A DNA stretch of 35,579 nt. Origin: Spirochaetes bacterium ADurb.Bin218 (lineage in GTDB: Bacteria; Spirochaetota; UBA4802; UBA5550). Within the stretch, counting starts at the first letter, position 1. Every line of letters begins with the position of its first letter. The DNA lies in assembly GCA_002069965.1 (NCBI GenBank), contig MWCI01000032.1, positions 1 through 35,579 on the forward strand. Reading direction: 5' to 3'. Position numbers and translations under genes: made by a program. Below are positions 1,321 to 33,214 of this stretch, in pieces. Under the pieces are notes generated by a model that searched no databases, was not told the DNA's origin, and saw only the letters and a program-made list of their open reading frames with translations.

Positions 1321-3144
1321 ATGAGTGCTTTGATTGAAAAAATAAGATCCTCAGAGATTTTTGAAAAGATTGATATATATCTTGCTGATTTTATATATAG
1401 CAATAGTAGAGATAAATCGGATATCATTTATATTCTTGTAGCTTTGCTTTCTTACAGAATAAGGAGAGGTGATATATGCCTTGAGATTGAAAAGATTGCG
1501 GGAAAGGATCTGAATGAGTTACTTGATGAGAGGTTGTCTGATGAAATTATAAAAATCCCTTCTATAAAACAAATACTGTCTGTGCTTAATAAAAGTGAGG
1601 TTGCAGGCTCAATAGCAAAAAGATTCCCTTTAATTTTAGATCTTGATCGAATTTATTTTGAAAAATATTTTTTCTTTGAACATGGGCTTGCAGAGATGAT
1701 TAAAAATAAACTCTCAAATAAAAATCATGCGGCAGATCTGAAAATTAATAAATCGCTTTTTTGCAAATTATTTGCATTTGATAATGAGATAAATTGGCAG
1801 GCTATTGCAGCTATATCATCTTTGAGTTTTAACTTCTCTGTAATATCTGGAGGTCCAGGCACAGGGAAAACCTCCACTGTTTTAAAAATAATAGCACTTA
1901 TGCTTGATCAAAATCATGACTTAAAGATAGCTCTGGCAGCTCCCACAGGTAAGGCTGCTTCAAGATTAAAGGATTCCATTGCATCTCAAATTAAAAGCCT
2001 TGATATAGATGAGACAATTGCCCAAAGGATTCCAACAGAAACCTTTACTATCCATAGGCTGCTTGGAACAAGAATTGGCTCTCATGAATTTATACACAAC
2101 AAGAGCAATCCTCTTGATTATGATGTCATTGTTGTTGATGAGTGTTCTATGGCAGATTTAGCTTTAATGTATAGATTGTTTTCTGCACTAAAAGAAGATT
2201 CAAAGATAATACTTCTTGGAGACAGAGATCAACTGGCCTCTGTTGAGGTAGGTGCTGTCTTTGGAGATATTTGTGATAGAGGAAAAATTCATGGATATAG
2301 CTCTCTTTTTGCTGGTCAAATTTGTTCCCATATAGGTCAGTCATATAAGGATCAAATAGACATTGATGAAAATGCAACAGCTCTTGCAGATGCTTTGACA
2401 ATACTAAAAAAAAGTTACAGATTTGGCAGTGATAGTGGCATAGGAAGGCTTTCCATTGCCGTAAGGAATGGTGATACAAAAGAAATAGAAAACTTAGCCA
2501 GAGAGCATAATCTTGAGGATATATCTATTATAAAATGTGATTATAGTGAAATCAAAAAAATTTATAGGGAGAAGGCTTTAAATTTTACTTTTCATGTTGG
2601 AGCAATTCATGAAGAAATCTTATCGTTTATAAAAGGCTGTTGTATTCTCACTGCCACAAGGGTCGGGATATATGGATTGCAAGCTATGAATAGATTGGCA
2701 GAGAATATTCTTTCAATGGAAAACATCATTGCTCCATGGAACAATTTTTATCCTGGACGACCTATTATGATAACAAGCAATGATTATAATCTTTTGCTTT
2801 TTAATGGAGATATAGGAGTTATTGCCTCTGATGGGCAAGACTTTAAGGCAATTTTTGAAAGGTCAGATGGTTCTGAATTTAAAGTGAGTCCCGCAAGGCT
2901 GCCAGAGCATGAAACAGCTTTTGCAATGACTGTGCATAAAAGTCAGGGTTCGGAGTTTGATGAGGTGATTGTTGTTTTACCAGAGAGTCAAAGCCTGATT
3001 ATGACAAGGGAGCTTTTATATACTGCAATAACAAGAGCAAAGAAAAAAGTTATTATTGCTGCAGATCTAAAAACTATAAAAGAAATGTCTCAAAGGCCTA
3101 TGGAGAGAATGACTGGCTTGAGAGATAGATTGTGGAATCTATAG
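1321..3144 (+). CDS. recD: RecD, exonuclease V alpha subunit (5'-3' SF1 helicase)
   Basis: This is the fast 5'-3' helicase motor of RecBCD. The 607 residues match RecD length. An N-terminal helical region precedes the Walker A motif GGPGTGKTS at about residues 177-185. The Walker B-like VVDECSMADL is near 271, LLGDRDQLASVEVG follows, and the C-terminal 2B/SH3-like segment holds TVHKSQGSEFDEV and LLYTAITRAKKK. I chose ATG 1321 because the Shine-Dalgarno-like GGTGAG (1308-1313) sits seven bases before it; the in-frame GTG at 1309 would overlap that site. The start follows the recB stop by one base. The 3' end overlaps the convergent HEAT-repeat gene by 6 bp, leaving no room for a terminator. 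Confidence 0.93.
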   Translation: MSALIEKIRSSEIFEKIDIYLADFIYSNSRDKSDIIYILVALLSYRIRRGDICLEIEKIAGKDLNELLDERLSDEIIKIPSIKQILSVLNKSEVAGSIAKRFPLILDLDRIYFEKYFFFEHGLAEMIKNKLSNKNHAADLKINKSLFCKLFAFDNEINWQAIAAISSLSFNFSVISGGPGTGKTSTVLKIIALMLDQNHDLKIALAAPTGKAASRLKDSIASQIKSLDIDETIAQRIPTETFTIHRLLGTRIGSHEFIHNKSNPLDYDVIVVDECSMADLALMYRLFSALKEDSKIILLGDRDQLASVEVGAVFGDICDRGKIHGYSSLFAGQICSHIGQSYKDQIDIDENATALADALTILKKSYRFGSDSGIGRLSIAVRNGDTKEIENLAREHNLEDISIIKCDYSEIKKIYREKALNFTFHVGAIHEEILSFIKGCCILTATRVGIYGLQAMNRLAENILSMENIIAPWNNFYPGRPIMITSNDYNLLLFNGDIGVIASDGQDFKAIFERSDGSEFKVSPARLPEHETAFAMTVHKSQGSEFDEVIVVLPESQSLIMTRELLYTAITRAKKKVIIAADLKTIKEMSQRPMERMTGLRDRLWNL

Positions 3145-4443
3145 TGAGACCTTTTGAATGTATTCTCTCAGGTATTCTCTCAATAGCTCTCGCAGGACAG
3201 GATCTTTTTCACTGGAGTATATGTCAAATAAATGAATTATGTCCTTTGAGTTTTTGATGCGCTGCAAAGAAAATAAAGCAGCAGTGCGGACATACCTTGA
3301 GGAGTCATTTTTGAGTTGATTAAGAAGTATTTCTGATTTTTGAGCGTGCCTTAAGTTTCCAAGAGAGTTGCAAGCCTCGGCTCTGATTCTGTAGTCGTTG
3401 TCATTCAGACAGTCAATGAGGGCATTAAAGGCCTGCTCCTTTTCACTTATAACCCCGAGGCAGTATATGGCCTTTATTCTAATATCAAAATTTTTTTCTG
3501 ATTTTGCTATAAAGGTGATTCCAGATATATTGCCGCTTTTGCCAAAGGTGATTATTGAATCAAGGATAGCTTTTTTTATATCGTCATCTTTTTCTGTTTC
3601 AAGCATTTGGGATAAAGTTGCAGCAGCCGAGGAGATTTTTAAAATCCTCAGGGTTTGAATTGATGTCAGAGTGAGTTCTTTATTCCCTTCTTTGATTATG
3701 GACAAAAGTATAGGTGCAGATTGAGTATCTTTAAATAAAGCAATTGCCTCAATAGCTCTTTTTCTTGCCTCTAAGTTTTCATCGCTTTTTGCAATCTGTT
3801 TTATTTTCGTTAAAGACTCTTTGATCTCATTTTCTGTGGCGCACTTTATTGCATATATCCTGACAGATTTATTTTCATCATTAAGGAAGGATATTACAAG
3901 ATTTTTGAATCTTACATCATAGAGGTAGTTTAGAGCCTCTAAAAGATAAATTCTTTCAACAGGATTTTGGCTTTTGCTTAAAATTAAGAGCTTTGGCAGA
4001 ATTCGGTCGTTCCCTTCTTTTTTGAGGAGCGATGCAGCTTTTTGTCTAACCTCAGTTGATGGTGAGATAAGTTTATCAGCTATATGGAGAGTAAAAATTT
4101 TCTCAGTATGTAGATATTCAAGAAGATCTATTTCAATTTTGGAGTTGTTGGTTTTGCTAAGTATTTCTATCCATGTACCTGCGATCTCTGTTGATGGATA
4201 AAGTTTTAGAGTTTCGATAATTCTCATTCTCACGAGAGAATCGTCATCATCGAGATATTCATCTCTCAGAAGAGATGGAATGTCTTCTGGATGATTTTCT
4301 TTTATATAAGAAAGAGCTTCTTCATAAGCAGGAGATTTGCCTTTTATTATTGCTTTAATAATCTTCTTTTGCTCCATGGCAAAGGAAGAAAGGCTCCCCG
4401 TAGCAATTAAAAATAGGGCTATTACTAATTTCGATAGCTTCAA
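3139..4443 (-). CDS. Exported HEAT-repeat protein
   Basis: A 434-residue protein of unknown specific role. The N-terminus is a classic signal peptide (positively charged MKLSK, hydrophobic core, SLSSFA cleavage region), so it is probably periplasmic. The rest is a tandem array of about 35-residue alpha-helical HEAT/PBS-lyase-like repeats, recognisable by recurring units such as EVRQKAASLL, SVRIYAIKCA, RIRAEACNSLGNL and YVRTAALFSLQRI. Such repeats form a curved superhelix for protein binding and carry no catalytic residues, so scaffold or chaperone roles are possible but not shown. The start lies 2 bp after the stop of the upstream TetR regulator, so the two form an operon. The family assignment is secure; the function is unknown. 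Confidence 0.82.
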   Translation of the reverse strand: MKLSKLVIALFLIATGSLSSFAMEQKKIIKAIIKGKSPAYEEALSYIKENHPEDIPSLLRDEYLDDDDSLVRMRIIETLKLYPSTEIAGTWIEILSKTNNSKIEIDLLEYLHTEKIFTLHIADKLISPSTEVRQKAASLLKKEGNDRILPKLLILSKSQNPVERIYLLEALNYLYDVRFKNLVISFLNDENKSVRIYAIKCATENEIKESLTKIKQIAKSDENLEARKRAIEAIALFKDTQSAPILLSIIKEGNKELTLTSIQTLRILKISSAAATLSQMLETEKDDDIKKAILDSIITFGKSGNISGITFIAKSEKNFDIRIKAIYCLGVISEKEQAFNALIDCLNDNDYRIRAEACNSLGNLRHAQKSEILLNQLKNDSSRYVRTAALFSLQRIKNSKDIIHLFDIYSSEKDPVLRELLREYLREYIQKVSL

Positions 4444-8760: not shown

Positions 8761-9810
8761 TTATTTTAGCATGAGAATCTCTGTGGAGAGTATAAAAGCA
8801 GGGTTAGATAATAAGTTTGTCTTTGCACTTCCACTTTTTGCAAGATATTCAGCTTTTGCTGCAATGGCAAAGATTGTTTTTATCTTTTCATCATTAAATA
8901 GGCGAGTGCTATCTATAAATTTTTCTTTTTTGAGCTTGCCCTGGATTCCGATTTTCTTTAACACTTCATCCTCTGCTAATCCTGATTTTATAAGCAGAAA
9001 GTATTTATCCAGAAACTCAAGCTGACGTATAATCATATTTATTATAAAAAGGGTTTCGGTCCCTTCATTTAAGAGCTTTTTAAGGATTGCAAGAGACCTT
9101 TTTTCTTTTAAAAAAAGTGAGTCTGTAAAGTCAAAGATTGTAACATCTTTTATATCACCAGCAAGATCTCTGATTAAGGATTCAGTAATTTCAATATCCT
9201 TTGAAAGGGAGAGATATTGCACCATGTCAAGGATTGTGTCTATTTTTTTTATATCGTTTCCAGCAAGCTCCAGTATTAGGTAGATAAATTTTTCCTCAAT
9301 AGGTATTTTTTTGTTTTTGGTCTCCACTTTGATATAATTTATAAGGTCGCTATCAAATTGTTTCCAGAATTGAAACACAGCCATTTTGCTTTCTGGAATA
9401 TGGGAAAGATATGATGGCACATCCTTTGATGATATTGTAATTATAAGCATTGTGCTTTCTGGCAGCTCCTCTGTTAGCTCCTTTATGAGTTTTTTATTTT
9501 TATCATTTGTTTTGATATTATCAAGATTTCTAATTATGCAGGCTTTTTTTGGAGAAAACATGGAAAAGGAAAGGGCAAAATCTACAGCAGCAAGAATTTC
9601 ATCATCAGAGCTTCTGTCTTCAAAAATAAAAAATTTTCCTGTATTGTTATTCTTATCCTCTTCAGATTGAAAAAACATTGAAAGCAGGGCGTTTATTGCT
9701 TTGTCTTTATCACCTTCAGCTTCTCCAGCAAAGAGATATATGTTGTGAGTTATTCCCTTTTTTATATTCTGGAAAAATTGCTTAGAGTTTGGAAAATTTT
9801 TTTGCGACAA
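8761..9810 (-). CDS. holA: DNA polymerase III delta subunit
   Basis: HolA is the clamp-loader subunit that opens the beta sliding clamp. The 349 residues equal the family norm. The recognisable sections are the N-terminal NIYLFAGEAEGDKDKAINAL, the region KKACIIRNLDNIKTN, the middle segment LAGNDIKKIDTILDMVQYL, and DLAGDIKDVTIFDFTDSLF before the C-terminal collar helices. As expected for delta, the Walker motifs are degenerate. The start is TTG at 9810, supported by AAGGAG six bases upstream and no better ATG nearby. It is convergent with pmbA with a single base between the stops. Just upstream lies decayed restriction-modification DNA, so its promoter abuts the accessory island. Confidence 0.9.
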   Translation of the reverse strand: MSQKNFPNSKQFFQNIKKGITHNIYLFAGEAEGDKDKAINALLSMFFQSEEDKNNNTGKFFIFEDRSSDDEILAAVDFALSFSMFSPKKACIIRNLDNIKTNDKNKKLIKELTEELPESTMLIITISSKDVPSYLSHIPESKMAVFQFWKQFDSDLINYIKVETKNKKIPIEEKFIYLILELAGNDIKKIDTILDMVQYLSLSKDIEITESLIRDLAGDIKDVTIFDFTDSLFLKEKRSLAILKKLLNEGTETLFIINMIIRQLEFLDKYFLLIKSGLAEDEVLKKIGIQGKLKKEKFIDSTRLFNDEKIKTIFAIAAKAEYLAKSGSAKTNLLSNPAFILSTEILMLK

Positions 9811-9879
9811 GGTTTTCTCCTTAAATATTAATTAATCGAATATAAAATCATCATGGCATATTTTATCAGGTGCAGAGTT

Positions 9880-10035
9880 TCACTCCCCCCTCACCCTATC
9901 AATCACCTGTTTAATCTTCTCCTCGTAAGTTTTCACCATCTCCCTCAGGCTGTCTATCACCTTCCGCTCGGATGTGAGTTTATCCACAATACGGCTCTGG
10001 ACTTCAACATCACTATAGTTCTTTCTATCGAACAA
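9880..10035 (-). pseudogene. Remnant A: C-terminal tail of a type I restriction-modification subunit (HsdS/HsdM-like)
   Basis: An orphan frame with no start codon or ribosome-binding site of its own reads about 50 residues to a TGA at 9880. It contains DVEVQSRIVDKL, close to the EVQ-x-IV-x-L helix that ends target-recognition halves of type I specificity subunits, and finishes TYEEKIKQVIDRVRGE. The fragment starts exactly where the upstream ASCH gene ends, so nothing else of the original gene remains. Base composition is GC-richer than the surroundings, consistent with foreign origin. HsdS is more likely than HsdM from the EVQ-type helix, but the piece is too short to be sure. Confidence 0.55.
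9881..9933. repeat. Direct repeat, left copy (about 52 bp)
   Basis: This block matches 12010-12061. After a one-base indel in the C-run at the outer end, about 42 consecutive positions agree apart from one (CACCCTATCAATCACCTGTT at its start, CTTCTCCTCGTAAGTTTT at its end). On the minus strand both copies encode TYEEKIKQVIDRV. The two copies bracket the PIN/ASCH gene pair. Confidence 0.9.
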
Positions 10036-10036
10036 A

Positions 10037-10399
10037 TTATAAGTAAAAAAAAGATTGAGGTGGTTTTTTCCCTAATTTTTCAATACTTATAGGATTTTCA
10101 TATAAGCATAATTTTCCAATTTTGATAGCATAACCTAGTTTAACACCATCAAAATATCGACAGAAGAAATCTTTATCTATTCCTGAATACATATGTGTTT
10201 CTTGCCATAATATATTCAATTCCTTTTCGATAATATCGTCTATTAAAAATTCACCAATAACAACCTTCCAAGGAGAAGACGCATATATTATAACACTTTC
10301 AACATCTTTTTTAAAGATCCGTCTCCTATATTCAAATTTTTTCTCTCCTGTAATAATCTTTTCAATAAATTCCGGTTTAATAGATAATAAAACTTTCAT
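10037..10399 (-). CDS. ASCH-domain (PUA-like fold) protein
   Basis: A 120-residue single-domain protein of the ASCH superfamily, beta-barrel folds related to PUA and EVE domains that bind RNA or modified bases. The family hallmark is at the N-terminus: LLSIKPEFIEKIITGEKKFEYRR, i.e. IKP followed by a GEKK-x-E-x-R turn; VIIYASSPWKVVIGEF follows as the next strands. ATG 10399 has an AAGGAGG site ten bases upstream and overlaps the last 23 bp of the PIN-GNAT gene in another frame, so translation is probably coupled. The 3' end abuts a restriction-modification remnant. Its role is unknown; partner, antitoxin or RNA reader for the neighbouring protein are reasonable ideas. Confidence 0.85.
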   Translation of the reverse strand: MKVLLSIKPEFIEKIITGEKKFEYRRRIFKKDVESVIIYASSPWKVVIGEFLIDDIIEKELNILWQETHMYSGIDKDFFCRYFDGVKLGYAIKIGKLCLYENPISIEKLGKKPPQSFFYL

Positions 10400-11927
10400 C
10401 GATATTTGCCTCCTTAATTATAGTTATGAAATTCTCTTTTGTTATCTCTTTTAAACCTCTTAACTCATTTTCTTCACCAGTTAAAATATTAAGCTCTAAC
10501 AGTCTTTTTCTTATCAACTTACTTCTTTGCTCAGATGTTAGAGAATAAATATGAAGAAAATTAATCAAAAAAGAACCATTATTTTGATTATCGTTCCACA
10601 TTTTTTTTAATTCTTCATCAGAGAAAATACTTCTTTTTCTTGCTTTTTGAATAAATTCTATTTCACTTGTAATATTATCAATTTTCTCTTCAACAAGAGC
10701 TATCGTAGTTATTAGTGCTGAGTAATAAGCTGATTTATCTTTTTCTTTTGTCCGATAAAAAAGTAGAATATCACCTTTTTTGATATCTCGATTTAATGAG
10801 CGAGAAATATAGGTTTTTGATATAGCGTTACGATGTGGTTTGTCTTCCTTAAAATTATCTGGTGATTCAGTTCTCAAAATAGAGTCTGGAAGTAACTCAG
10901 TATGATAATCTGGCCATATTGGAACAATAAAAATTTTGTTATTTGCATTATGTGATATAAATGGATAAGTTTTCCTCGGATAATTTATATCAAACTTTGG
11001 AGTAAAGTCTCTTACATAAACAAGCTCGCCCGTACTTTTTTTGATCCCCCATTTATTAAACCCCCATTCCTCCAATAAATTAATTAATCTTTTTTGCTCA
11101 TCTCTTTTGTCAAATATGGTAACATAAATTTCATTTACCTTTTGCTTAATGGCATTATCAAAAACAATCTTTAAAAATCTTTCTGCCAATCTGTAACCAT
11201 TTAATGCTACTTTAAATGTTCCAATTTTTAATCTCTTTTCCTTTTGAGAAAAAATTGGTTCTATGTCATTATAGTTTTCGTCTTTTTCTTCGATTTTGAG
11301 ATACAAAAAAGAGCATACTTTACCATCAGCCATTGAAATATATACAGGTTCATTTGATTTTTTATTGAACCAAGTTCCAAACTCTGGATAATCTTCTTTA
11401 AATGAATCAAAAAAAGTATCCTTTAAATCAATTTTTCCGAAATAAGACTTTTCTACACTTAATACTTTATAATCTGTAAGATCTGGAAATTCTCTGTTTA
11501 CAAGCTCTAAAAAACTTTCGATTGTAAAAACTTTTTCCGAAATATTTAACAAATTAGCTTTTTGGTGTATTTTTTTATCTTCTGTTAAAAGGATATCAAC
11601 TGTACCTCTGAAAACTTCATTTAATAACAATGTATCATTTTTATCATTTTCGTTTTTATCATATCTTATTGATATACTTTCAACTTCTTGTTCAAGTTTA
11701 TTTAATGTTATTAATTCATTATAAGCATCCAACTTAATACTAAATGTATTTTTCTTATCTTTATCTTTTAATTTATTAATTTCTTGTTTTGTTATTTGAT
11801 GGATGAATTTTTGAGCGTTTATTTTATCGAGCCAATTAAATAATTTACCTATATCAGAATTAATTATTTTTTCGGTTTCGCGATGGATAATGATGTTTGT
11901 GTCAAGAAGTATTTTTACATTTTTCAC
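10377..11927 (-). CDS. PIN nuclease - GNAT-like - PUA/EVE-like fusion protein
   Basis: A 516-residue three-part protein. Residues 4-140 form a PIN domain, with acidic positions D9 (LLDTN), E49 (KQEINKL), D98 (KNDTLLL) and D111/D117 (VDILLTEDKKIH), so metal-dependent RNase activity is plausible. Residues about 150-310 resemble a GNAT acetyltransferase (NGYRLAERFLKIVFDNA, then LLEEWGFNKWG), although the acetyl-CoA loop is degenerate. Residues about 370-510 look like a PUA/EVE-type reader (KKGDILLFYRTKEKDKSAYY). The start is GTG 11927, because an AAGGAGG lies 11 bases before it and the PIN fold begins immediately; the upstream ATG at 11987 has no such site. It is coupled to the ASCH gene by a 23-bp overlap. 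A role in defence or toxin-antitoxin biology is inferred. Confidence 0.8.
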   Translation of the reverse strand: MKNVKILLDTNIIIHRETEKIINSDIGKLFNWLDKINAQKFIHQITKQEINKLKDKDKKNTFSIKLDAYNELITLNKLEQEVESISIRYDKNENDKNDTLLLNEVFRGTVDILLTEDKKIHQKANLLNISEKVFTIESFLELVNREFPDLTDYKVLSVEKSYFGKIDLKDTFFDSFKEDYPEFGTWFNKKSNEPVYISMADGKVCSFLYLKIEEKDENYNDIEPIFSQKEKRLKIGTFKVALNGYRLAERFLKIVFDNAIKQKVNEIYVTIFDKRDEQKRLINLLEEWGFNKWGIKKSTGELVYVRDFTPKFDINYPRKTYPFISHNANNKIFIVPIWPDYHTELLPDSILRTESPDNFKEDKPHRNAISKTYISRSLNRDIKKGDILLFYRTKEKDKSAYYSALITTIALVEEKIDNITSEIEFIQKARKRSIFSDEELKKMWNDNQNNGSFLINFLHIYSLTSEQRSKLIRKRLLELNILTGEENELRGLKEITKENFITIIKEANIDESFIIY

Positions 11928-12008
11928 AAATTGAATGTCCTCCTTATATATGTTAATTAGAGATAAACTTCTTGTTATTTCGACCATACTTTTATACAGT
12001 CATTTCTC

Positions 12009-12115
12009 TCACTCCCCCACACCCTATCAATCACCTGTTTTATCTTCTCCTCGTAAGTTTTAATCAGTTCCCATATAAACTGATCTCTTTTGTCAATATA
12101 GGATTTTAAAAATAT
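12009..12115 (-). pseudogene. Remnant B: second type I restriction-modification tail
   Basis: On the minus strand this reads a short segment (YIDKRDQFIWELI) running into TYEEKIKQVIDRVWG, the same tail as remnant A but with a different sequence before it. Compared with copy A, one G is missing just before the end, so the natural GAG-TGA stop is out of frame and the reading continues to a TAA at 11975. A TAA at 12116-12118 closes the frame upstream. It has no start and is clearly non-functional. The two tails probably come from two different hsd genes or from a duplication followed by divergence. Confidence 0.5.
12010..12061. repeat. Direct repeat, right copy (about 52 bp)
   Basis: Partner of 9881-9933 in the same orientation, about 2.13 kb away. 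The interval between the copies contains exactly the PIN-GNAT-PUA and ASCH genes. The length is sufficient for RecA-dependent excision or duplication of the cassette. Confidence 0.9.
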
Positions 12116-12134
12116 TTAGAGGATATCTTCTTTT

Positions 12135-12285
12135 TTAAAGCTGTTTTTGCCTCTCTTTACTAAAGTCTCTATAGTAAATTTCATCATTGATCTGTATCGA
12201 ATATAGCAGGAATGCCATAGGACTCTATTTCCTCATTTAGTGCTGATATGGCATTTCTGCATCAAGCATGGCTTCTCCATTTATA
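12135..12285 (-). pseudogene. Decayed coding remnant, possibly IS3-family transposase OrfB
   Basis: One minus-strand frame (12184-12252) reads ALNEEIESYGIPAIFDTDQ and then stops. This resembles the segment before the second catalytic aspartate of IS3-type DDE transposases (usually YG-x-P-x-IFNTDQG). An overlapping shifted frame (12135-12191) reads NDEIYYRDFSKERQ, which could match the EEIY segment further downstream in such transposases, implying an internal deletion. Stops, frameshifts and the tiny size show it is dead. The assignment rests on one short motif and is weak; a third frame, MKFTIETLVKRGKNSF, is also open here. Confidence 0.35.
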
Positions 12286-12318
12286 AATAACTTTCTTTTT
12301 TTAGCACATTGAAAAACC

Positions 12319-12385
12319 TGTCGAAAATTTTCGATTTTTTCGACATGTTAAAAAAATGTGTCGAAAGTTTTTGATTTTTTCGACA
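12319..12385. repeat. Two tandem palindromes TGTCGAAA...TTTCGACA downstream of fic
   Basis: Two 27-bp units (12319-12345 and 12359-12385) repeat with a 40-bp period. In each, TGTCGAAA or its near-copy is mirrored by TTTCGACA, so each can form an 8-9 bp hairpin. On the minus strand, the direction of fic, each hairpin is followed by a run of T, so they could act as double terminators. Their sequence conservation is higher than a terminator needs, so regulator or recombinase binding sites are the alternative. Confidence 0.75.
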
Positions 12386-12402
12386 TGTTTTCTCAGAAAC
12401 AA

Positions 12403-13485
12403 TTATATCTCAGAAGTTAAATCAAAGTTTTTAAACAAAAGAAACAAAGGTTCATTGATAAAATAGTTATTTTTCCCCACTTTTTCCTTTTTTAGTAGTC
12501 CCCCTTTTACTAATTCATCCAGATAGCTTGCTGCAGTTTGTCTATGAATATTCAAATCTTGCTGAAGATACTCAATCTTTGTATAAGGATGTTTAAAGAG
12601 GTTATTGAGTAAATCCTGAGAATAGAATTTATAATTGCTTCTAATCGTATGCTTATATTTTATCATTAGTTTTGATATTTCATTGATAAGATATATCGTG
12701 CCTTTAGATGTAATTTCTATTCCTTTAAGCATATATAAGATCCAGTCTTCCCAGTTTCCTTTATCTCTTACTTCCTGAAGCAACCGATAGTAATCGGATT
12801 TTGTTTTAATAATATAGCTACTTAGATAAAGTATTGGCAAATCAAGTAATCCCTTTTGCACAAGATAGAGAATATTCAGCATTCTTCCTGTTCGTCCATT
12901 TCCATCATAAAATGGATGGATCGATTCGAACTGAAAATGAATTATCGCCATTTTAATTAAAGGATCGACAGGATGAAGGTCGTCATTATTTATGTATTCT
13001 TCGAGATTTTGCATGAGTCGGACAATTGTGTCATAATCCTGAGGTGGAACATATACGGTTTCACCAGTTGATGTATTTTTAAGTTCTGTTCCCGGCAGCT
13101 TTCTATATCCTGCGTTGTGAGAGACTATAATTTCCTGAATATTTAAAATGATTCTATTGGTAAGTAGCAGCTTGTTTTTTAGAGCATCAAATCCCATTTT
13201 CAAAGCTTTTGCATAATTTTGAACTTCTTTTGCATTGGGATTTGATATAAAATTTTCAAAAAGATCTTCCTTATAAATTTCATCATGAGTTGTAATAATA
13301 TTTTCAATTGCAGAGCTATCCTTAGCTTCAAGTAAGGGTAGAGTATTTATTAGAATGGCTTCATTGGGAATTATTTTAGAAATACCTTTTAATTCTGCTA
13401 AAAAACGATAGGTCTGGGGAAGTTGTTTTAGAACTGCCTTAGTTTCGACATCAGCTTTTGGTGGCAGAATATTTAACTTGCTCAT
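12403..13485 (-). CDS. Fic-domain AMPylase-like protein, class II, with C-terminal winged helix
   Basis: A 360-residue Fic protein, a family that usually transfers AMP to hydroxyl side chains of target proteins. The catalytic loop HPFYDGNGRTGR at residues 190-201 is intact, including the active histidine. The inhibitory helix motif S57-x-x-x-E61-N62 (SSAIEN) lies N-terminal to the Fic core, which makes this a class II enzyme that restrains itself without a separate antitoxin. The C-terminus has a helix-turn-helix (IHRQTAASYLDELVKGGLL) and a wing, suggesting DNA binding and autoregulation. I chose ATG 13485 because AAGGGG lies about eight bases upstream; an in-frame ATG at 13509 has none. It stands alone, flanked by decayed genes. 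Confidence 0.93.
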   Translation of the reverse strand: MSKLNILPPKADVETKAVLKQLPQTYRFLAELKGISKIIPNEAILINTLPLLEAKDSSAIENIITTHDEIYKEDLFENFISNPNAKEVQNYAKALKMGFDALKNKLLLTNRIILNIQEIIVSHNAGYRKLPGTELKNTSTGETVYVPPQDYDTIVRLMQNLEEYINNDDLHPVDPLIKMAIIHFQFESIHPFYDGNGRTGRMLNILYLVQKGLLDLPILYLSSYIIKTKSDYYRLLQEVRDKGNWEDWILYMLKGIEITSKGTIYLINEISKLMIKYKHTIRSNYKFYSQDLLNNLFKHPYTKIEYLQQDLNIHRQTAASYLDELVKGGLLKKEKVGKNNYFINEPLFLLFKNFDLTSEI

Positions 13486-13515
13486 AATAGTTTCCCCTTT
13501 ACACCACAAATTTAT

Positions 13516-13706
13516 TCAGTGGCATATTGTCTTTTTTTCAGGTTTATTCCAGAGAGATCTAATTTCATAAATGATTACCATGTATTTTTCTATTTTAAAA
13601 GCCAGATCAACCTCATTGTGCATTTTTAATCGGAGGTCATTGCTTTTCTATAAAGGCTTTTAATTCTTTTTCTATTACGTTTAGTTTCTATATCATTAAA
13701 ACTCAT
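13516..13706 (-). pseudogene. DUF3024 protein, broken by two frameshifts
   Basis: The reading starts MSFNDIETKR at ATG 13706, shifts frame to IEKELKAFIEKQ, meets an in-frame TGA just before PPIK, then shifts again to MHNEVDLAFKIEKYMVIIYE followed by IRSLWNKPEKK and a TGA at 13516. Joined together these give the order of a DUF3024 domain (family pattern: IEK...RPP...LDL-x-F-x-I-E...EIRP-x-W-x-x-P). The second half of the family is absent, so the gene is also truncated. It lies just upstream of fic on the same strand and marks this region as one of ongoing gene loss. Confidence 0.72.
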
Positions 13707-13815
13707 AATACCTTGTTTTCATTCTTTTATTATTTAGTTTACTTTTATTCTCAAAGAATTCATCATAGCAACAATCTCTTATGCCAAGAGCTTTTCATAT
13801 TGGAATTTCATTCAT
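13696..13815 (-). pseudogene. Small broken frame with a strong ribosome-binding site
   Basis: An AAGGAGGTGA Shine-Dalgarno sequence stands upstream of ATG 13815. The frame reads MNEIPI, an in-frame TGA, then KALGIRDCCYDEFFE and onward to a TAA at 13696 that overlaps the start of the DUF3024 pseudogene. I do not recognise the family. The strong site implies it was once translated. A CTCTT-GGCAT-AAGAG hairpin follows the TGA, but decay of the neighbouring gene makes simple inactivation the likelier reading. Confidence 0.35.
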
Positions 13816-14261
13816 TCTCTGGCTTCACCTCCTTAAAATAAGGCACAGATTGCCAGCTGGAAATTTTGCACTTTTTGCATATAACTGCTTAACCTTTGAA
13901 TTGTATATTGTATATATACTCCTTTATAGTTCTTTTTTTGCTGCTGTCAACTGTTTTGTGTAAAGTTATAAACGTTTAAAATATTTTAATTTTTATAATA
14001 TCGCAATATACTTAGCCCAAAAAATAGAACGTATATTTTCAGTTAAAAGAGGCTGAGCCTTTGTATGAGGTTTTTCCTGAGCACCTAAGTATCGCACTTT
14101 ATAATTGAATTTGCCATATTATTGCCATAGCCTTGAAAAAAATGTTTGACTCAAATTTACTATATGAATTGATAGTTAAAAATATTCTTTAATATAAGAA
14201 TAAGAAAATATATTTATTTAAATATAAAATTTTTAATTATATTTTTATAAGGGGTAGCGGT
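13816..14261. other. Intergenic region between the accessory island and tig
   Basis: No credible gene is visible in these 446 bases. Notable pieces are TTGTATATTGTATATATAC (13901-13919), which ends in a 10-bp palindrome and lies upstream of the broken small genes; a short AGGCT-G-AGCCT palindrome near 14050; and two copies of TTGCCATA spaced 11 bp apart near 14111-14129. The promoter of the tig operon should lie at the right end. Confidence 0.5.
14146..14176 (+). promoter_or_regulatory. Weak candidate promoter for tig-clpP-clpX-lon
   Basis: TTGACT at 14146-14151 is a good -35. The best -10 is GATAGT at 14171-14176, at a longer than ideal 19-bp spacing. It lies about 85 bp upstream of the tig start. 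No CIRCE-type heat-shock operator is visible. Confidence 0.3.
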
Positions 14262-15608
14262 TTGAATATTTTAAGTGAAAAAAAATTAGATAATGCTGTT
14301 GTAGAGTTTGAGATTGAAGTTCCAGCGGAAACTGTTGCTGAAGAATATAAGCAGGTTTTTAGCAAAATACAGAAGCGAGTTGCAATAGATGGATTTAGAA
14401 AGGGAAAAGCACCTCTTCAAATTGTTGAAGTAAAGTATAATGACTATGCTGGCGAGGAGGTAGCAGAAAATCTCGTAAGGAGATCCATAGTAGATGCCCT
14501 TGAAAAGACCTCCCATATACCTATAGCTGAACCAAGATATAGCTATGATACAATTGATAAGAACTCTCCTTTTAAATTTAAGGCCTTTATTGAGGTTATG
14601 CCTTCTATAGAAATTGGAGATTACAAAGGCATAGAAGCTAAGGAATATAGTTATACCATAAAAGAAGAGGATGTTGACTTTGAAATAGATGCAATTCGTG
14701 AGAGATATGCAGAGATCGAACCTGCAGGGGAAGATGCTGTTGTTGAAAAGGGAAATCTTGTTAGCATAAGGATTAAGCGAATTGATGAGACAGAGGGGGA
14801 TCCTGATGCTGTAGGTTTTAGAGAATATTCATCTGTTATTGGTAAGACAAAGGATGAGTATTCCATAGAAAATCAGGTTATAGGAATGAAGGCAGGAGAG
14901 GAAAGGAAAATTAAGCAGACCTATCCAGAAAGCTTTCCTGTAAAAGAGTTTGCTGGCAAAGAAGTAGAGTTTTTGGTGCAGATTAAAGGCATTAATAAGC
15001 TTGTTCTCCCAGAATTAAATGATGAATTTGCCTCTAAAGTGGGATATAAGTCTGTAGAAGAGATGAGAAGTAAGATAAGAGAAAATCTCGAAAAATATGT
15101 AAAAGATAAGACTATAAATGACGCAAGAAGTACTGTAATGGCAGGAGTTGTTAAAAATACAAAATTTGATATTCCTACTTCAATGGTTCTTAAAGAGATG
15201 TCTGCAATTTTTGAAAGGACTCAGCAGAGGATGGGTTATAGAGCAGAGAGCCTTGAGGAATTTGCAGAAATAATGGGACTTGATCCTCAGGAATATGCCC
15301 AGAGGCTGAAAGAGGCTGCGGAGCTGTCAATAAAGCATACTCTTGTGCTAAATGAGGTTTCAAAGAAAGAAAATCTGACAGTTTCTGAGGATAAGTTTAA
15401 ATCTCAGATTAATGAGCTTGCAAAGGCTATGGGAAAAACTCCAGAGGAGATTGAAAAAGCCATAGAAGAAAATAATTCAAAAGAATCAGTTGAGAATGAA
15501 ATTTTGCTTGAAATGGCTATGGATTTCCTCTATGATAATGCAAAGATTACAAAGGTTCAGCTTAATGCTTTGACTGATCTTGTTAATAGAGTTGAGGAGC
15601 AGAGTTAA
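14262..15608 (+). CDS. tig: Trigger factor
   Basis: Trigger factor is the ribosome-associated chaperone and peptidyl-prolyl isomerase that meets nascent chains. The 448 residues are normal. The ribosome-docking signature GFRKGKAP is at residues 44-51. The FKBP-type isomerase domain follows at about 160-245 (EKGNLVSIRI ... VIGMKAGEERKI), then the long helical C-terminal chaperone arms with ELNDEFASKVGYKSVEEM. The start is TTG 14262, seven bases after AAGGGG; the translation begins MNILSEKKLDNA, which aligns with the family's N-terminus. It is the first gene of the proteostasis operon with clpP, clpX and lon. Confidence 0.95.
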   Translation: MNILSEKKLDNAVVEFEIEVPAETVAEEYKQVFSKIQKRVAIDGFRKGKAPLQIVEVKYNDYAGEEVAENLVRRSIVDALEKTSHIPIAEPRYSYDTIDKNSPFKFKAFIEVMPSIEIGDYKGIEAKEYSYTIKEEDVDFEIDAIRERYAEIEPAGEDAVVEKGNLVSIRIKRIDETEGDPDAVGFREYSSVIGKTKDEYSIENQVIGMKAGEERKIKQTYPESFPVKEFAGKEVEFLVQIKGINKLVLPELNDEFASKVGYKSVEEMRSKIRENLEKYVKDKTINDARSTVMAGVVKNTKFDIPTSMVLKEMSAIFERTQQRMGYRAESLEEFAEIMGLDPQEYAQRLKEAAELSIKHTLVLNEVSKKENLTVSEDKFKSQINELAKAMGKTPEEIEKAIEENNSKESVENEILLEMAMDFLYDNAKITKVQLNALTDLVNRVEEQS

Positions 15609-28551: not shown

Positions 28552-31500
28552 TTAGAAAGAGATGCCTAAGATTCTGTGTTCAACCTTGTCATTAATTTCT
28601 ACTCTCTTGTATATAAATTTAAGTATGCTGAGTTTTGAGAAGTTGGTCTCTGATTCTGTCTCGTATTGCCATAGCAATCCCCACAAACTTCCAAAGGATT
28701 GGTAGCCTCTTTCTGGCCTCTGGATTTTATAATAGGGTATTCCAAGCAATAGGGCCTGGATATCGCTATGCTCCTTGGACTCATAATTTCTGAACCATAT
28801 AGCTCCAAGAGCCCATGCCTGTAATCTACTATCGTCATTATCCTTGCTATCCCATGTTAGGAGTGGAGGAATTATGAGAGTATAGGAGTCTTCAAAACTT
28901 TCATAATACCAAAAAGGAATAAATTTATTTTTATAGTAATTTTCCCGTGATGTAATGCCTGCAAGATAGAATAGAGCATTAAACTCATAGCTATTGCTTG
29001 ACCATTGAAGATCTGTAAGAAATCCCCATAAGGCACAAAAGCGTTTTACCTCAGGATGGATTTCAAGCTTAAGAGTTTTAAAGGCCAGAGAAAATTCTTC
29101 TTTGTCATTTGCCGAATCTTTTATGTGATCATAGAGATATAGAAAATTTTCTCTGCTGTAATTTTGAGCATTCTTTAGATAGAGTCCAAGAATAAATTTA
29201 GTAGATTCATTTTCTTTATTGTTCCAATCATAGAAAAATATAGGAGCAATGTGAAAGTAGCCATTGTCCCCTGTTTTTGAAAATATAAATGGCAGGAACC
29301 AGATCCTTGTGCTTTTATCTAATTGGTCATATCCGTAATCCAGGAGCCACAGAATATTCCAGTGAGTTGAACTCTCATCTGAATGTTTATAAAAGAGAGG
29401 AACTATTGGAATCCAGAAAGTTTTTTCTATAGGAGAATTATTGTTATAATGTGTGAAGTGATAGTGCAGTGGTGAAACAGTGAGTGTCTCTGAGAATTCA
29501 AAATCGCTTTTATCAGGTTCTATTTTACTATAATAGAAAAAGGGCACCAGCCATAGCTCGCTCTCTGAGGCATCTGAAACACTATAGGTTTTGTTATAGC
29601 TATAGTGATACTTAAAATGGGTAATTGAGTTGTTATATATCCAGTAAAATAAAGAGAATGATGAATCTCCCTTTAAGCTGTTCTTTGAAAAAGAAGTAAG
29701 TCCAAGCAGCAATGAAAAATCAAAGGAATCTTTATTGGAATTATAAATATATAATGGTATTGCTCTGTTTGTGAAATTACCATTGATGTTAGAAACATTA
29801 ATCAGGCTGTATAGGAGGGAGAAGGAGTAGTCTTTGCTTTCATAATAATTTGAATATTCCCACAGGCCAAAGAGAAAACTTTTATTGACCATTGAATCTG
29901 ATTTTTTTTGGTAATAGCCCAAAAGAAAAATTTCACTCTTCTGTTGACTTCTGTTTTCTTTGAGATAAGAATCTTCTGTTGAGTTGTAATAAAGGAGAGG
30001 AAGTCCATAAAGTGTATAAGTTGTTGTTATAGAATTGTTCCCTTCATCCCTTGTTTTATTTTTAAAGGAGATATAAAAAGGGAGAAGCCAATCTGTCGTT
30101 TTTGTTTCTTCAACTCTGTATTTTTTTATAACAGTCAAATTTTCTGCAGGCTTTTTCTTTTTTGTTTCTTTAGTCTCTTTTATTTCTGTTGCCAGAGGGA
30201 TCTCGTATGTAGAGTTAATTGTTTCTTCATTATGATAGAGCAAAGGGATTATGCTAAACCATGTGGTTGATGAGTAAGAAGCATCGCTTTTCAAGTGATA
30301 ATAATGAAGAAGGCTTATTGTAAGCCTTTGTGAAATTTGATTATCAGTTACTTTTTTTTCTTCTCTGTCAATAAAGAGAGTGGTGTATGTTGAGCTGTAT
30401 ATAACATCGCCTTCAATTTTCTCTTTGTGCCAGATTAAGGGTATAATTCTATAGCCACTCTTATCAGGTGAGCTATACCAGTTTATAAATGGCCATAGTA
30501 TTGTATATTCCTTCATATTTTTTTCATGGTCATATTCTATCCACAAGCAGTTGAGCATAAAACCCTTTTTATAGGAACTGGCAATTTTTTGATAACCATA
30601 AAAAGGGAAAAATACTATATATTCGGATTCATCATCTTTATAGGAGATATAGTTTAATATAACCTTTAATCTATTGTCAGATTCGCTATCCCATGTGAGC
30701 CATGATAAAGGCAAAATTCTTAGATGGCGCTTTGTATCAGCTTTTTCAAAGGCAACAAGCCCATAGAGCAAGTGGAATCCCCAAAAATTAAGGGAGTTTT
30801 CTCTACTAACGCTTGGATCTTTAGAAAGGGTAATTTCGCCAGTTGCTATCTCTGACTTGAATTTGGATTCCTCATCTCTGGTCATTGGAACAGTAACGCG
30901 TGAGGAGAGGCTTACCATATCAATAAGCCATGATATATCAATATCCATATATATCCCACGGTTGTTTATTCCAAGGCTTGTATCAATAACAGGGTTTATC
31001 CCAGAGGCTATTGAACGGGAGTATCCAAGAATGTTTATATATGTGCTTCCACTTCCGTCTTTTTTTGTTGTTTCAAAGTAAAGAGGTAAAAATAGAGTTG
31101 AATTTCTTTTGCTTGTTTTTATGTTCCAGTATATTGGGTTTATAACTCTGGCAAAGTATCCACCACTTTCAAGACTGTTGTGATAATAATATAAAGGAAA
31201 AAACAACAGGGTTTCTTCATCCTCTTCCAAAGAGGAGTAGAAAAGTGGAATGATAGGTGCCCAGTATTCTGATTTTATTTTGTTGATTTTGTTTATATCA
31301 CTATAGGAACTGTTATAGCAAAATAACAGTGATCTAAAAGAATCAGTGTATATATCTGAAGTTTGTTTATTGTGATAACTGAATTCTCTATCAAGGGATC
31401 TCTTAAAAATTGGGAAAAGGCTCAGCCAGTATTCTCCATTTGAATGTCTGTTATAAAGAAATATTGGCGGAAGAATATGAGTATAGCCATTGTCTCCCAC

Positions 31501-32160
31501 CTGGTGAAGGATCAGTGGGAAAAACCAGAAATCGTTTAAGACGTCATTTCCTGATGAGTCTTTATGCCACGAATAGTCCATGAGCCACAATATATTCATG
31601 TGGCCACCATTTTGATCTGTACTCCTAAAGATTAGAGGAATTATAGGTGCCCACCATGTTTTTTCAGGTTCTTTAAACGTTGCTTTGTTATAAAATGAGT
31701 AGCCATGGAATAGTGACAGGGTGTAGATCTCTGTTGTATTGTCATTGTATTTTATATTCCCAGACACAAAAAGTGGATTTATTTTAAAATCTTCTTTGTA
31801 GTAGCTATCTTCGTCATGTTCCCAATAGGTTAATGCTATAGGAATAAAAGAAAGGGAACGATTATCCTTCTTGCTTTGAAGTCCATAATAAAATGGAAGA
31901 ATTCTTATGGATTTATATGAAGGATAGTCTGTATATTTAAATAGCCAGAAGAACATAAAGGAGTAGTGGTTATCCCATGACTCCCTCTGCAGAAAGAACA
32001 TATCTGGATTATATTTTTTTTCCTTTTCACTCCCAAAGATGTGCTCATCCTCTTTGTGAAGATCATTCCACTCCCTTGAAAAGGCAGGGAGTGGAATGAT
32101 TGTAAGTGATAAAAAGACAATTATAATTAAAGCCTGGATAATGGATGTTTTTTGTTTCAT
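28552..32160 (-). CDS. Large exported aromatic-rich repeat protein (1202 aa)
   Basis: I do not recognise this family. A signal peptide (MKQKTS, hydrophobic stretch, IPLPAFS) directs export. The mature part is rich in tryptophan, tyrosine, phenylalanine, serine and asparagine, organised as many short strands of the type FFPLYYY, ILPLSWLTW, IIPLIWHKE, each followed by a polar charged turn. Such a pattern fits amphipathic beta-strands, for example an outer-membrane or beta-solenoid protein. Residues about 168-250 and about 912-995 are clear duplicates (APIIPLIF / IPIVPLFY, then HMNILWLMDY / HWNILWLLDY, then VGDNGYTHI / TGDNGYFHI). No catalytic motif is seen. It begins 13 bp after the 346-aa gene, without a good ribosome-binding site. 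Confidence 0.85.
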   Translation of the reverse strand: MKQKTSIIQALIIIVFLSLTIIPLPAFSREWNDLHKEDEHIFGSEKEKKYNPDMFFLQRESWDNHYSFMFFWLFKYTDYPSYKSIRILPFYYGLQSKKDNRSLSFIPIALTYWEHDEDSYYKEDFKINPLFVSGNIKYNDNTTEIYTLSLFHGYSFYNKATFKEPEKTWWAPIIPLIFRSTDQNGGHMNILWLMDYSWHKDSSGNDVLNDFWFFPLILHQVGDNGYTHILPPIFLYNRHSNGEYWLSLFPIFKRSLDREFSYHNKQTSDIYTDSFRSLLFCYNSSYSDINKINKIKSEYWAPIIPLFYSSLEEDEETLLFFPLYYYHNSLESGGYFARVINPIYWNIKTSKRNSTLFLPLYFETTKKDGSGSTYINILGYSRSIASGINPVIDTSLGINNRGIYMDIDISWLIDMVSLSSRVTVPMTRDEESKFKSEIATGEITLSKDPSVSRENSLNFWGFHLLYGLVAFEKADTKRHLRILPLSWLTWDSESDNRLKVILNYISYKDDESEYIVFFPFYGYQKIASSYKKGFMLNCLWIEYDHEKNMKEYTILWPFINWYSSPDKSGYRIIPLIWHKEKIEGDVIYSSTYTTLFIDREEKKVTDNQISQRLTISLLHYYHLKSDASYSSTTWFSIIPLLYHNEETINSTYEIPLATEIKETKETKKKKPAENLTVIKKYRVEETKTTDWLLPFYISFKNKTRDEGNNSITTTYTLYGLPLLYYNSTEDSYLKENRSQQKSEIFLLGYYQKKSDSMVNKSFLFGLWEYSNYYESKDYSFSLLYSLINVSNINGNFTNRAIPLYIYNSNKDSFDFSLLLGLTSFSKNSLKGDSSFSLFYWIYNNSITHFKYHYSYNKTYSVSDASESELWLVPFFYYSKIEPDKSDFEFSETLTVSPLHYHFTHYNNNSPIEKTFWIPIVPLFYKHSDESSTHWNILWLLDYGYDQLDKSTRIWFLPFIFSKTGDNGYFHIAPIFFYDWNNKENESTKFILGLYLKNAQNYSRENFLYLYDHIKDSANDKEEFSLAFKTLKLEIHPEVKRFCALWGFLTDLQWSSNSYEFNALFYLAGITSRENYYKNKFIPFWYYESFEDSYTLIIPPLLTWDSKDNDDSRLQAWALGAIWFRNYESKEHSDIQALLLGIPYYKIQRPERGYQSFGSLWGLLWQYETESETNFSKLSILKFIYKRVEINDKVEHRILGISF

Positions 32161-32173
32161 TAATATTAGAGTT

Positions 32174-33214
32174 TTATTCCCACCATTTGTAGTCTTTGTA
32201 TATCATAAAAGGTTCAGGAGTATCTGGCAATTCTCCCAATCTCCACTTTGGTCCCTTTTGTTCGTTTTTATAGATGTCATAGAGATTTTTTGCAAAGAGA
32301 GATTTTTCAATAAAAGACATCTTCATAAACTTTGTTCCATCGAGTTTATTTTTCTTTGCAACCTCGTCGTAGATTAATATTGATTTAATTGTTTTTCCCA
32401 TAGAGAAGTCATATTTTTTCAATCCATTCCATGGAACATTATCTCCATATTCTATTGTAATAGTCTCGGATGGCATGACGTTAAAGCTTTTGAGATCAAC
32501 AGAGCACTTTTGATAAACAGTCTTTGCCATGTTGTCGCTATCACCCTGGTAAGAATAAGTCGTGACTTCTACAGCAGGAGGTACTGAGCCTATCGTCTTT
32601 TTGACACTAATAGGTCTTCCTTTGTTGTCTCTCTCGATTTTTGTTGAATTAGCTACAGCCATGTTTAAGAGAAGAGAATCAACGTTTATGTTTTTCTCCT
32701 CTATTTCAATTAGCCTTCCATTGGTATCATATTTGTAAGAGTAATCAGTTTTTAGAATAAACACTCCCATTACAGGATAGGATGTATAACCACGGCATAT
32801 CACATAAACAGGTAGTCCTTTTTCGTTGTAATTAACTATTCTCACGCTTTTTAATCTGAAACCATCTTTTTCTATATTGAGATTAACTTCAGACTCATCT
32901 TTAATCTTTTTTTCAGCAAGCATTGTCTCATATTTTTTAGCCAGAGCGGTGTCTGTGAAGATATTTGAGTTTTCTTTTTTGTCTTTATCTTTTTTGTCAA
33001 TAGCCTCCCAGTATTCGCCACGAACCTTCAGGTTGTCCTTGTAGAAGTATATTATTTTACCTATGATTTTCTCGTCTTTTTTAAGCTCTATGACTTCTGT
33101 ATTATCTTTGGCTATGGCTTTTTCTTTTGAATTTTCTGCAAGTAAATTACCTTGAAGTAAAAAGAGTGTAATTGGAGCATATAAAAAGCCAAGAGTTCTT
33201 TTTGCAAAAGTCAT
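32174..33214 (-). CDS. Exported hypothetical protein with YD-type repeats (346 aa)
   Basis: Signal peptide MTFAKRTLGFLYAPITLFLLQ with cleavage near LLA-EN. The mature protein has scattered short units of the form YNEKGLPVYV, YDTNGRLIEIEEK and RDNKGRPISVKKT, which resemble the YD/RHS-like beta-hairpin repeats found in wall- and surface-associated proteins, but too few for an RHS barrel. The N-terminal mature part is lysine- and glutamate-rich. A good AAAGGAG site precedes ATG 33214. It lies between the histidine kinase and the 1202-aa repeat protein on the same strand; with the latter it makes a two-gene secreted unit. Function unknown. Confidence 0.75.
   Translation of the reverse strand: MTFAKRTLGFLYAPITLFLLQGNLLAENSKEKAIAKDNTEVIELKKDEKIIGKIIYFYKDNLKVRGEYWEAIDKKDKDKKENSNIFTDTALAKKYETMLAEKKIKDESEVNLNIEKDGFRLKSVRIVNYNEKGLPVYVICRGYTSYPVMGVFILKTDYSYKYDTNGRLIEIEEKNINVDSLLLNMAVANSTKIERDNKGRPISVKKTIGSVPPAVEVTTYSYQGDSDNMAKTVYQKCSVDLKSFNVMPSETITIEYGDNVPWNGLKKYDFSMGKTIKSILIYDEVAKKNKLDGTKFMKMSFIEKSLFAKNLYDIYKNEQKGPKWRLGELPDTPEPFMIYKDYKWWE

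What the first reader, a model, noticed from the sequence alone, without database searches (positions are those of the whole stretch)
9880..12115. Two-gene PIN-GNAT-PUA + ASCH cassette bracketed by duplicated restriction-modification tails
Directly visible: on the minus strand a 516-aa fusion gene and a 120-aa ASCH gene, overlapping by 23 bp, fill almost the whole space between two copies of a 52-bp sequence that encodes the same TYEEKIKQVIDRV tail. From family knowledge: PIN domains are RNases, GNAT toxins acetylate aminoacyl-tRNA, and ASCH/PUA/EVE folds read modified RNA or bases. Inference: this is a compact RNA-directed defence or toxin-antitoxin module that settled in, or was shuffled with, a type I restriction locus.
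Basis: partly seen in the sequence, partly recalled or inferred. Interest (0 to 1): 0.8.

Follow-up and report, generated by a model that had tools for sequence, protein, structure and literature searches.

The report
Defence toxin pair in decayed restriction operon
Two overlapping bacterial genes, already catalogued elsewhere as a candidate anti-virus toxin and its partner, sit intact inside the wreck of a restriction enzyme operon whose own genes have shrunk to their tail ends; the pair is a known kind, but the wreck shows how such modules ride along with restriction systems and outlive them.

Summary
A 516-aa gene (10377-11927, minus) and a 120-aa gene (10037-10399, minus) overlap by 23 bp between two copies of a 65-bp, 89%-identical repeat. 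They are full-length members of PADLOC's phage-defence candidate PDC-M11 (E 2e-195 and 2e-46), the PIN-GNAT-EVE + ASCH pair that Bell et al. (2020, PMC7641849) predicted as a toxin-antitoxin linked to type I restriction. So the module is not new.

What is new here is the setting. The bracket is a decayed HsdR-SoFic-HsdMS operon: an HsdR C-terminal stub, intact SoFic, an HsdMS stub, intact M11A/M11B, a second HsdMS stub. Sister operons carry other defence cargo (DarTG, AbiD+SIR2, AIPR, Kiwa) around or before the same HsdMS tail.

Across 80 genomes every M11A with room has the ASCH gene; in this phylum ASCH also occurs without M11A but never the reverse, the asymmetry expected of toxin and antitoxin. 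All PIN acidic residues are invariant; models confirm GNAT and EVE/YTH folds. Most likely the GNAT (with PIN) poisons translation through RNA/tRNA, and ASCH restrains it. This is inferred; no activity is shown. New member of a known kind; interest modest.

The parts
13499..13534 (-). HsdR C-terminal stub (KDNMPLNKFVV*), all that remains of hsdR
   Evidence: 8 of 10 residues identical to the HsdR C-terminus of L059; only site in the window above 5 of 10; lies directly before SoFic, where hsdR ends in L059
12403..13485 (-). SoFic-type protein adenylyltransferase (Fic), intact, 360 aa; cargo between hsdR and hsdMS
   Evidence: NCBIfam SoFic 6e-114, PADLOC SoFic 2e-119; 72% identical to SoFic of L059, which lies between HsdR and HsdMS there
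12319..12385 (.). Two tandem palindromes TGTCGAAAAAATCRAAAANTTTCGACA (12319-12345 and 12359-12385), possible operator
   Evidence: 0 expected in shuffles; only 2 copies in the genome; same palindrome between SoFic and HsdMS in L059
12014..12076 (-). Upstream HsdMS C-terminal stub (ELIKTYEEKIKQVIDRVWG), stop codon lost
   Evidence: tblastn with HsdMS of L054/L059, E 4e-6 to 5e-6; 65-bp repeat with the downstream stub, E 2e-16
10377..11927 (-). M11A: PIN (about 1-145) - GNAT (about 160-310) - EVE/YTH (about 322-516) fusion, 516 aa
   Evidence: PADLOC PDC-M11A E 2e-195 over full length; PIN acidic residues invariant in 78 relatives; Foldseek GNAT and PIN and EVE/YTH; G+C 26% against 36% around it
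10037..10399 (-). M11B: ASCH protein, 120 aa, probable antitoxin/partner
   Evidence: PADLOC PDC-M11B E 2e-46; nearest solved structure ZmASCH 5gus/5guq, profile E 4e-22
9883..10032 (-). Downstream HsdMS C-terminal stub (50 aa incl. TYEEKIKQVIDRVRGE*), with the original stop
   Evidence: 79% identical over 42 aa to the end of HsdMS in L054, E 7e-15

Best explanation
The two genes are a complete PDC-M11 module (PIN-GNAT-EVE + ASCH) that was cargo of a type I restriction operon of the HsdR-SoFic-HsdMS kind. The restriction genes have been lost, leaving only C-terminal stubs; the module and SoFic stayed intact. Most likely it works as a toxin-antitoxin-type defence: the EVE domain docks M11A on RNA or DNA carrying a particular base, the GNAT acetylates a target (best guess charged tRNA, as other GNAT toxins do) and the PIN domain cuts RNA, stopping growth of the infected cell; the ASCH protein, translated from the overlapping start, holds M11A inactive until infection disturbs the balance. 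Shown by sequence: module identity, folds, conserved PIN site, obligate partner, one-way dependence, decayed operon. Inferred: toxicity, target, restraint by ASCH, trigger.
For: Full-length PDC-M11A/B matches. ASCH directly downstream in 78 of 80 loci, the other two at contig ends, 23-bp overlap in 49. In the phylum all 13 genomes with M11A have M11B, while 7 of 20 genomes with M11B lack M11A; in two of these (G116, G319) the ASCH gene overlaps a stand-alone GNAT, so GNAT + ASCH looks like the core. Prophage psiM100 has PIN-GNAT-EVE (ORFD) overlapping ORF5, the expected ASCH position, by 23 bp; its record says ORF5 is shared with phage psiM2 whereas fragment IFa, which holds most of ORFD, is an insertion relative to it. 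Phage PhiR47_2's GNAT-EVE/ASCH pair is annotated GevT toxin/GevA antitoxin and matches the same PADLOC models. PIN D12, E20, D98, D101, D120 invariant in 78 relatives. Folds: GNAT incl. toxin AtaT2, PIN, EVE/YTH. Hsd genes 30/284 within two genes versus 3/415 further away, odds ratio 16, p 1e-9. Stubs and sister operons.
Against: No experiment is available here. The acetyl-CoA loop of the GNAT is atypical (N-G-x-R/K-L-G/A instead of R/Q-x-x-G-x-G/A), and the window copy has A251 where 77 of 78 relatives have G, so acetylation is not certain. The only biochemically studied relative of the ASCH partner, ZmASCH, is reported as an RNase (PMC5615036), not an antitoxin. The toxin/antitoxin label in GenBank is a depositor's word; no paper on it was found.
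Confidence: 0.55

Rival explanations
1. The GNAT acetylates a DNA or RNA base and the EVE/ASCH domains read that mark: a modification-based restriction or self-marking system rather than a toxin-antitoxin (the view of Iyer et al. 2013, as reported by Bell et al. 2020).
For: EVE/YTH fold is closest to readers of modified bases, YTH-McrB and THYN1 with 5mC DNA; close link to DNA methylases; proposal cited in PMC7641849.
Against: The window module has outlived its methylase and specificity genes; GNAT-EVE pairs are common in prophages without restriction genes; an invariant PIN site points to RNA.
Confidence: 0.14
2. PrrC-like guard: M11A is kept silent by the type I enzyme and released when a phage inhibits restriction.
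For: Often directly between hsdM and hsdS (L078, L082, L091, L105); PrrC is a precedent in a type I locus (PMC12707154).
Against: Here hsdR and hsdMS are stubs and no other HsdMS with this tail is in the genome; most M11 loci have no Hsd gene nearby by these profiles. Strict dependence is unlikely for this copy.
Confidence: 0.1
3. Counter-measure: PIN-GNAT-EVE destroys acetylated tRNAs made by phage GNAT-EVE proteins, so it is a protector, not a toxin (suggested by Bell et al. 2020).
For: GNAT-EVE occurs in phages, PIN-GNAT-EVE mostly in hosts.
Against: PIN-GNAT-EVE also occurs in prophage psiM100; the one-way dependence on ASCH is then unexplained.
Confidence: 0.1
4. The ASCH protein is an enzyme that undoes the GNAT's acetylation (YqfB-like amidohydrolase) or is itself the effector RNase (ZmASCH-like).
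For: ZmASCH is a PDC-M11B homologue (E 9e-28) with reported RNase activity; Y39 and S116 (ZmASCH Y47, S128) nearly invariant; K20 and R25 match essential Lys21 and Arg26 of YqfB by spacing.
Against: The YqfB nucleophile Thr24 is an invariant Glu here (E23); the ZmASCH Lys53 position is Lys in only 15% of relatives.
Confidence: 0.12

Closest known systems
PDC-M11 (PADLOC-DB 2.0.0 phage defence candidate, M11A + M11B)
   Same: Both proteins match over full length, same order, same overlap
   Different: Nothing in the proteins; here the surrounding restriction genes are stubs
PIN-GNAT-EVE / ASCH predicted toxin-antitoxin of Bell et al. 2020 (PMC7641849)
   Same: Domain order, ASCH partner, type I restriction association
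   Different: That paper did not, in the passages read, describe decayed operons, HsdMS tail duplication, or GNAT-only partners of ASCH
GevT/GevA of Escherichia phage PhiR47_2 (GenBank PV340567)
   Same: GNAT-EVE + ASCH, overlapping genes, same PADLOC families
   Different: No PIN domain; prophage location beside cI
DarTG2 embedded in a type I operon of E. coli (PMC12255303)
   Same: Toxin-antitoxin pair carried inside a type I restriction operon; DarTG also follows HsdMS in sister locus L165
   Different: Unrelated toxin and antitoxin; restriction genes intact
ZmASCH (PDB 5gus, 5guq)
   Same: Closest solved relative of M11B; reported single-strand RNase
   Different: Lys53 position not conserved across M11B; partner gene of ZmASCH not examined here

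Membership tests
PDC-M11 (PADLOC) | M11A matches the family model over full length | tested here: met
   PDLC04422, E 2e-195, residues 8-518 of the 519-aa query
PDC-M11 (PADLOC) | M11B adjacent and matching | tested here: met
   PDLC04425, E 2e-46, overlapping by 23 bp
PDC-M11 (PADLOC) | Protects against phage | not testable with these tools
   The family itself is only a candidate
PIN-GNAT-EVE + ASCH (Bell et al. 2020) | PIN, GNAT and EVE domains in this order plus separate ASCH gene | tested here: met
   Foldseek hits to GNAT and PIN, EVE/YTH, ASCH
PIN-GNAT-EVE + ASCH (Bell et al. 2020) | Association with type I restriction genes | tested here: met
   Odds ratio 16, p 1e-9, in 80 loci; stubs in the window
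Toxin-antitoxin system | Toxin gene never without its partner, partner may stand alone | tested here: met
   0 of 13 versus 7 of 20 genomes
Toxin-antitoxin system | Toxicity neutralised by partner | not testable with these tools
   Needs expression experiments
GNAT toxins (AtaT/TacT kind) | GNAT fold | tested here: met
   Many GNATs incl. AtaT2 7f37, E 4e-4
GNAT toxins (AtaT/TacT kind) | R/Q-x-x-G-x-G/A acetyl-CoA loop | tested here: inconclusive
   N-G-x-R/K-L-G/A; last G is A251 in the window
GNAT toxins (AtaT/TacT kind) | RHH-type antitoxin partner | tested here: not met
   Partner is ASCH
PIN ribonucleases | Conserved acidic active site | tested here: met
   D12, E20, D98, D101, D120 conserved in 77-78 of 78
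YqfB-type ASCH amidohydrolase | Thr-Lys-Glu triad with Thr24 nucleophile | tested here: not met
   K and R kept by motif spacing, Thr replaced by invariant E23
PrrC-like restriction guard | Cognate restriction enzyme present | tested here: not met
   hsdR and hsdMS reduced to stubs; no other strong match to the tail in the genome

The most novel reading that the evidence does not exclude
The 3' end of hsdMS is a recurrent exchange point where defence modules enter and leave a type I restriction operon, leaving a second copy of the gene's last 60-150 bp as a footprint. In this phylum such tails lie on both sides of M11 (window) and after an intact hsdMS and AIPR/AbiU (L054), and orphan tails follow a nickase-like gene (L055), Kiwa (L057) and a glutamine amidotransferase (L167); other copies of the operon carry DarTG, AbiD+SIR2 or PDC-S05.
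Probability: 0.3. Interest if true: 0.6.

Novelty: new member of a known kind. Interest (0 to 1): 0.38.

Why it matters
PDC-M11 pairs are widespread across bacteria and archaea, but no experimental study of them was found here. The window gives a natural test: a module kept intact with a ruined restriction operon, so it should work alone. The one-way dependence and the GNAT-only/ASCH pairs name the probable toxic core. The repeated hsdMS tails offer a marker for finding defence cargo and for asking how it is swapped.

Tried and rejected
Transposition with target-site duplication: rejected, since the repeat is a coding gene end (65 bp, 89%), unequal in length, and no transposase lies between. 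Hidden large remnants of hsdR/hsdMS: tblastn of 9701-14300 found only the C-terminal stubs. Intact HsdMS with this tail elsewhere in the genome: not found; three other N6_Mtase-domain matches, best 68 bits in a 565-aa frame, were not examined. Tail peptide in plasmids: no match. Sequence search of M11A against PDB: none. YqfB-type antitoxin: nucleophile missing. Literature on GevAT and PDC-M11 in the open library: none; the 2013 paper was not held; the first PADLOC paper search returned only unrelated papers. Family III upstream protein (23 loci) and its PADLOC/Pfam identity: none found. The empty site could not be shown cleanly: same-genus genomes have other genes upstream of holA, so the islet lies at a rearrangement point.

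Full report
Observation. The window holds, on the minus strand, a 516-aa gene (GTG 11927, stop 10377) with a good ribosome site and a 120-aa gene (10399-10037); they overlap by 23 bp. Two copies of a 65-bp sequence, 89% identical, flank them; it is the strongest direct repeat of the window.

Identity. The proteins are full-length matches to PADLOC's PDC-M11A (E 2e-195) and PDC-M11B (E 2e-46); Pfam alone sees only weak PIN, EVE and ASCH signals. A model of M11A from a 7-sequence alignment (pLDDT 74.5) matches GNAT acetyltransferases, including the toxin AtaT2, and PIN proteins. A model of residues 322-519 (numbering of the 519-aa query) from 68 relatives (pLDDT 85.9) matches EVE/YTH readers of modified bases: YTH-McrB, THYN1 with 5mC DNA, 2eve, YTHDF2. 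PIN acidic residues are conserved in 77-78 of 78 relatives. The ASCH protein's nearest solved relative is ZmASCH (profile E 4e-22), itself a PDC-M11B homologue with reported single-strand RNase activity (PMC5615036). Bell et al. 2020 (PMC7641849) already described PIN-GNAT-EVE + ASCH as a predicted toxin-antitoxin near type I restriction systems, with GNAT-EVE in prophages. So the module is a known kind.

Spread and context. A scan of 84,980 species genomes returned 80 loci from Bacteroidota, Brachyspira, Paenibacillus, archaea and others. All have the ASCH gene except two cut by the contig end; 49 share the exact 23-bp overlap. Hsd genes occur at 30 of 284 positions within two genes of the pair and at 3 of 415 positions four or more genes away (odds ratio 16, p 1e-9); upstream neighbours are often HsdM, downstream ones HsdS, and AAA_17 kinases are common. 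In 23 loci an unnamed protein of mostly 330-370 aa lies directly upstream.

One-way dependence. In 393 genomes of the phylum, 13 have M11A and all 13 have M11B; 20 have M11B at E below 1e-14, and 7 of these lack M11A. In two of the seven the ASCH gene overlaps a stand-alone GNAT. In prophage psiM100 the PIN-GNAT-EVE gene overlaps ORF5 by 23 bp, and the record calls the fragment holding most of the fusion an insertion relative to psiM2, which has ORF5; that ORF5 is the ASCH gene is inferred from position and was not tested. An Escherichia phage record names its GNAT-EVE/ASCH pair GevT toxin/GevA antitoxin. Together these point to a toxin-antitoxin logic with GNAT + ASCH as the core and PIN and EVE as added parts. 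This is inference; nothing was tested for toxicity.

The bracket explained. The repeated peptide is the C-terminus of HsdMS, a fused N6-methylase and specificity protein of 813-878 aa. In L059 of another family of the phylum the order is HsdR-SoFic-HsdMS. The window keeps the same order: an HsdR stub KDNMPLNKFVV* (13534-13499; 8 of 10 residues identical, no other window site above 5 of 10), intact SoFic (72% identical to that of L059), an HsdMS stub, M11A, M11B, and a second HsdMS stub. The M11 genes have 26% G+C, below every same-length window outside the islet (31-42%), while the stubs have 41-46%: different origins. Restriction is gone, yet the cargo genes are open; the module therefore probably works without the restriction enzyme.

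Other cargo. Sister HsdR-HsdMS operons carry PDDEXK_3 (L164, L054), AbiD and SIR2 (L168), PDC-S05 (L169) and DarTG (L165). A second, short HsdMS tail follows AIPR/AbiU in L054; orphan tails follow a nickase-like gene (L055), Kiwa (L057) and a glutamine amidotransferase (L167). DarTG2 inside a type I operon has been studied in E. coli (PMC12255303), and PrrC is the classic embedded guard (PMC12707154). Whether the tail is a true exchange point or only debris is open; several of these loci end at contig ends, and only one sister contig has both tails.

Mechanism. Best reading: M11A is an RNA- or tRNA-directed toxin aimed by its EVE domain, with GNAT and PIN activities, held by M11B. Caveats: the acetyl-CoA loop is atypical and the window has A251 where nearly all relatives have G. 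M11B keeps the Lys and Arg of the YqfB site by spacing but has Glu for the Thr nucleophile, which speaks against reversal of acetylation by the YqfB chemistry. Confidence in identity is near certain; in the mechanism about one half.

Noticed in passing
window 12319-12385: Two tandem palindromes TGTCGAAAAAATCRAAAANTTTCGACA just after SoFic; unique in the genome, and the same palindrome lies between SoFic and HsdMS in L059 (2563-2589). L075 has a different palindrome pair, 42 bp apart, after its SoFic. Possible operator of the SoFic C-terminal HTH.
   Followed up: partly
L072-L149, gene directly upstream of M11A (e.g. L149:7949-9004): A family of mostly 330-370-aa proteins (MDNSFFIF..IERFHICTWEF) precedes M11A in 23 of 80 loci, in many overlapping it by 4 bp; no Pfam or PADLOC match in the members scanned. 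Possible third component.
   Followed up: partly
L184:1017-1499 with ASCH from about 1494; L185 likewise: Stand-alone GNAT overlapping an M11B-type ASCH gene, without PIN or EVE: perhaps the minimal form of the module.
   Followed up: partly
L165:8822-10504: DarT and DarG directly after an intact HsdMS.
   Followed up: yes
L172 (psiM100) 1362-1736 and 1554-4346: The record marks three 125-bp repeats at the left edge of the inserted fragment that holds most of the PIN-GNAT-EVE gene.
   Followed up: no
window 28552-32160 and 32174-33214, minus: A 1202-aa and a 346-aa protein of unknown family, not examined.
   Followed up: no
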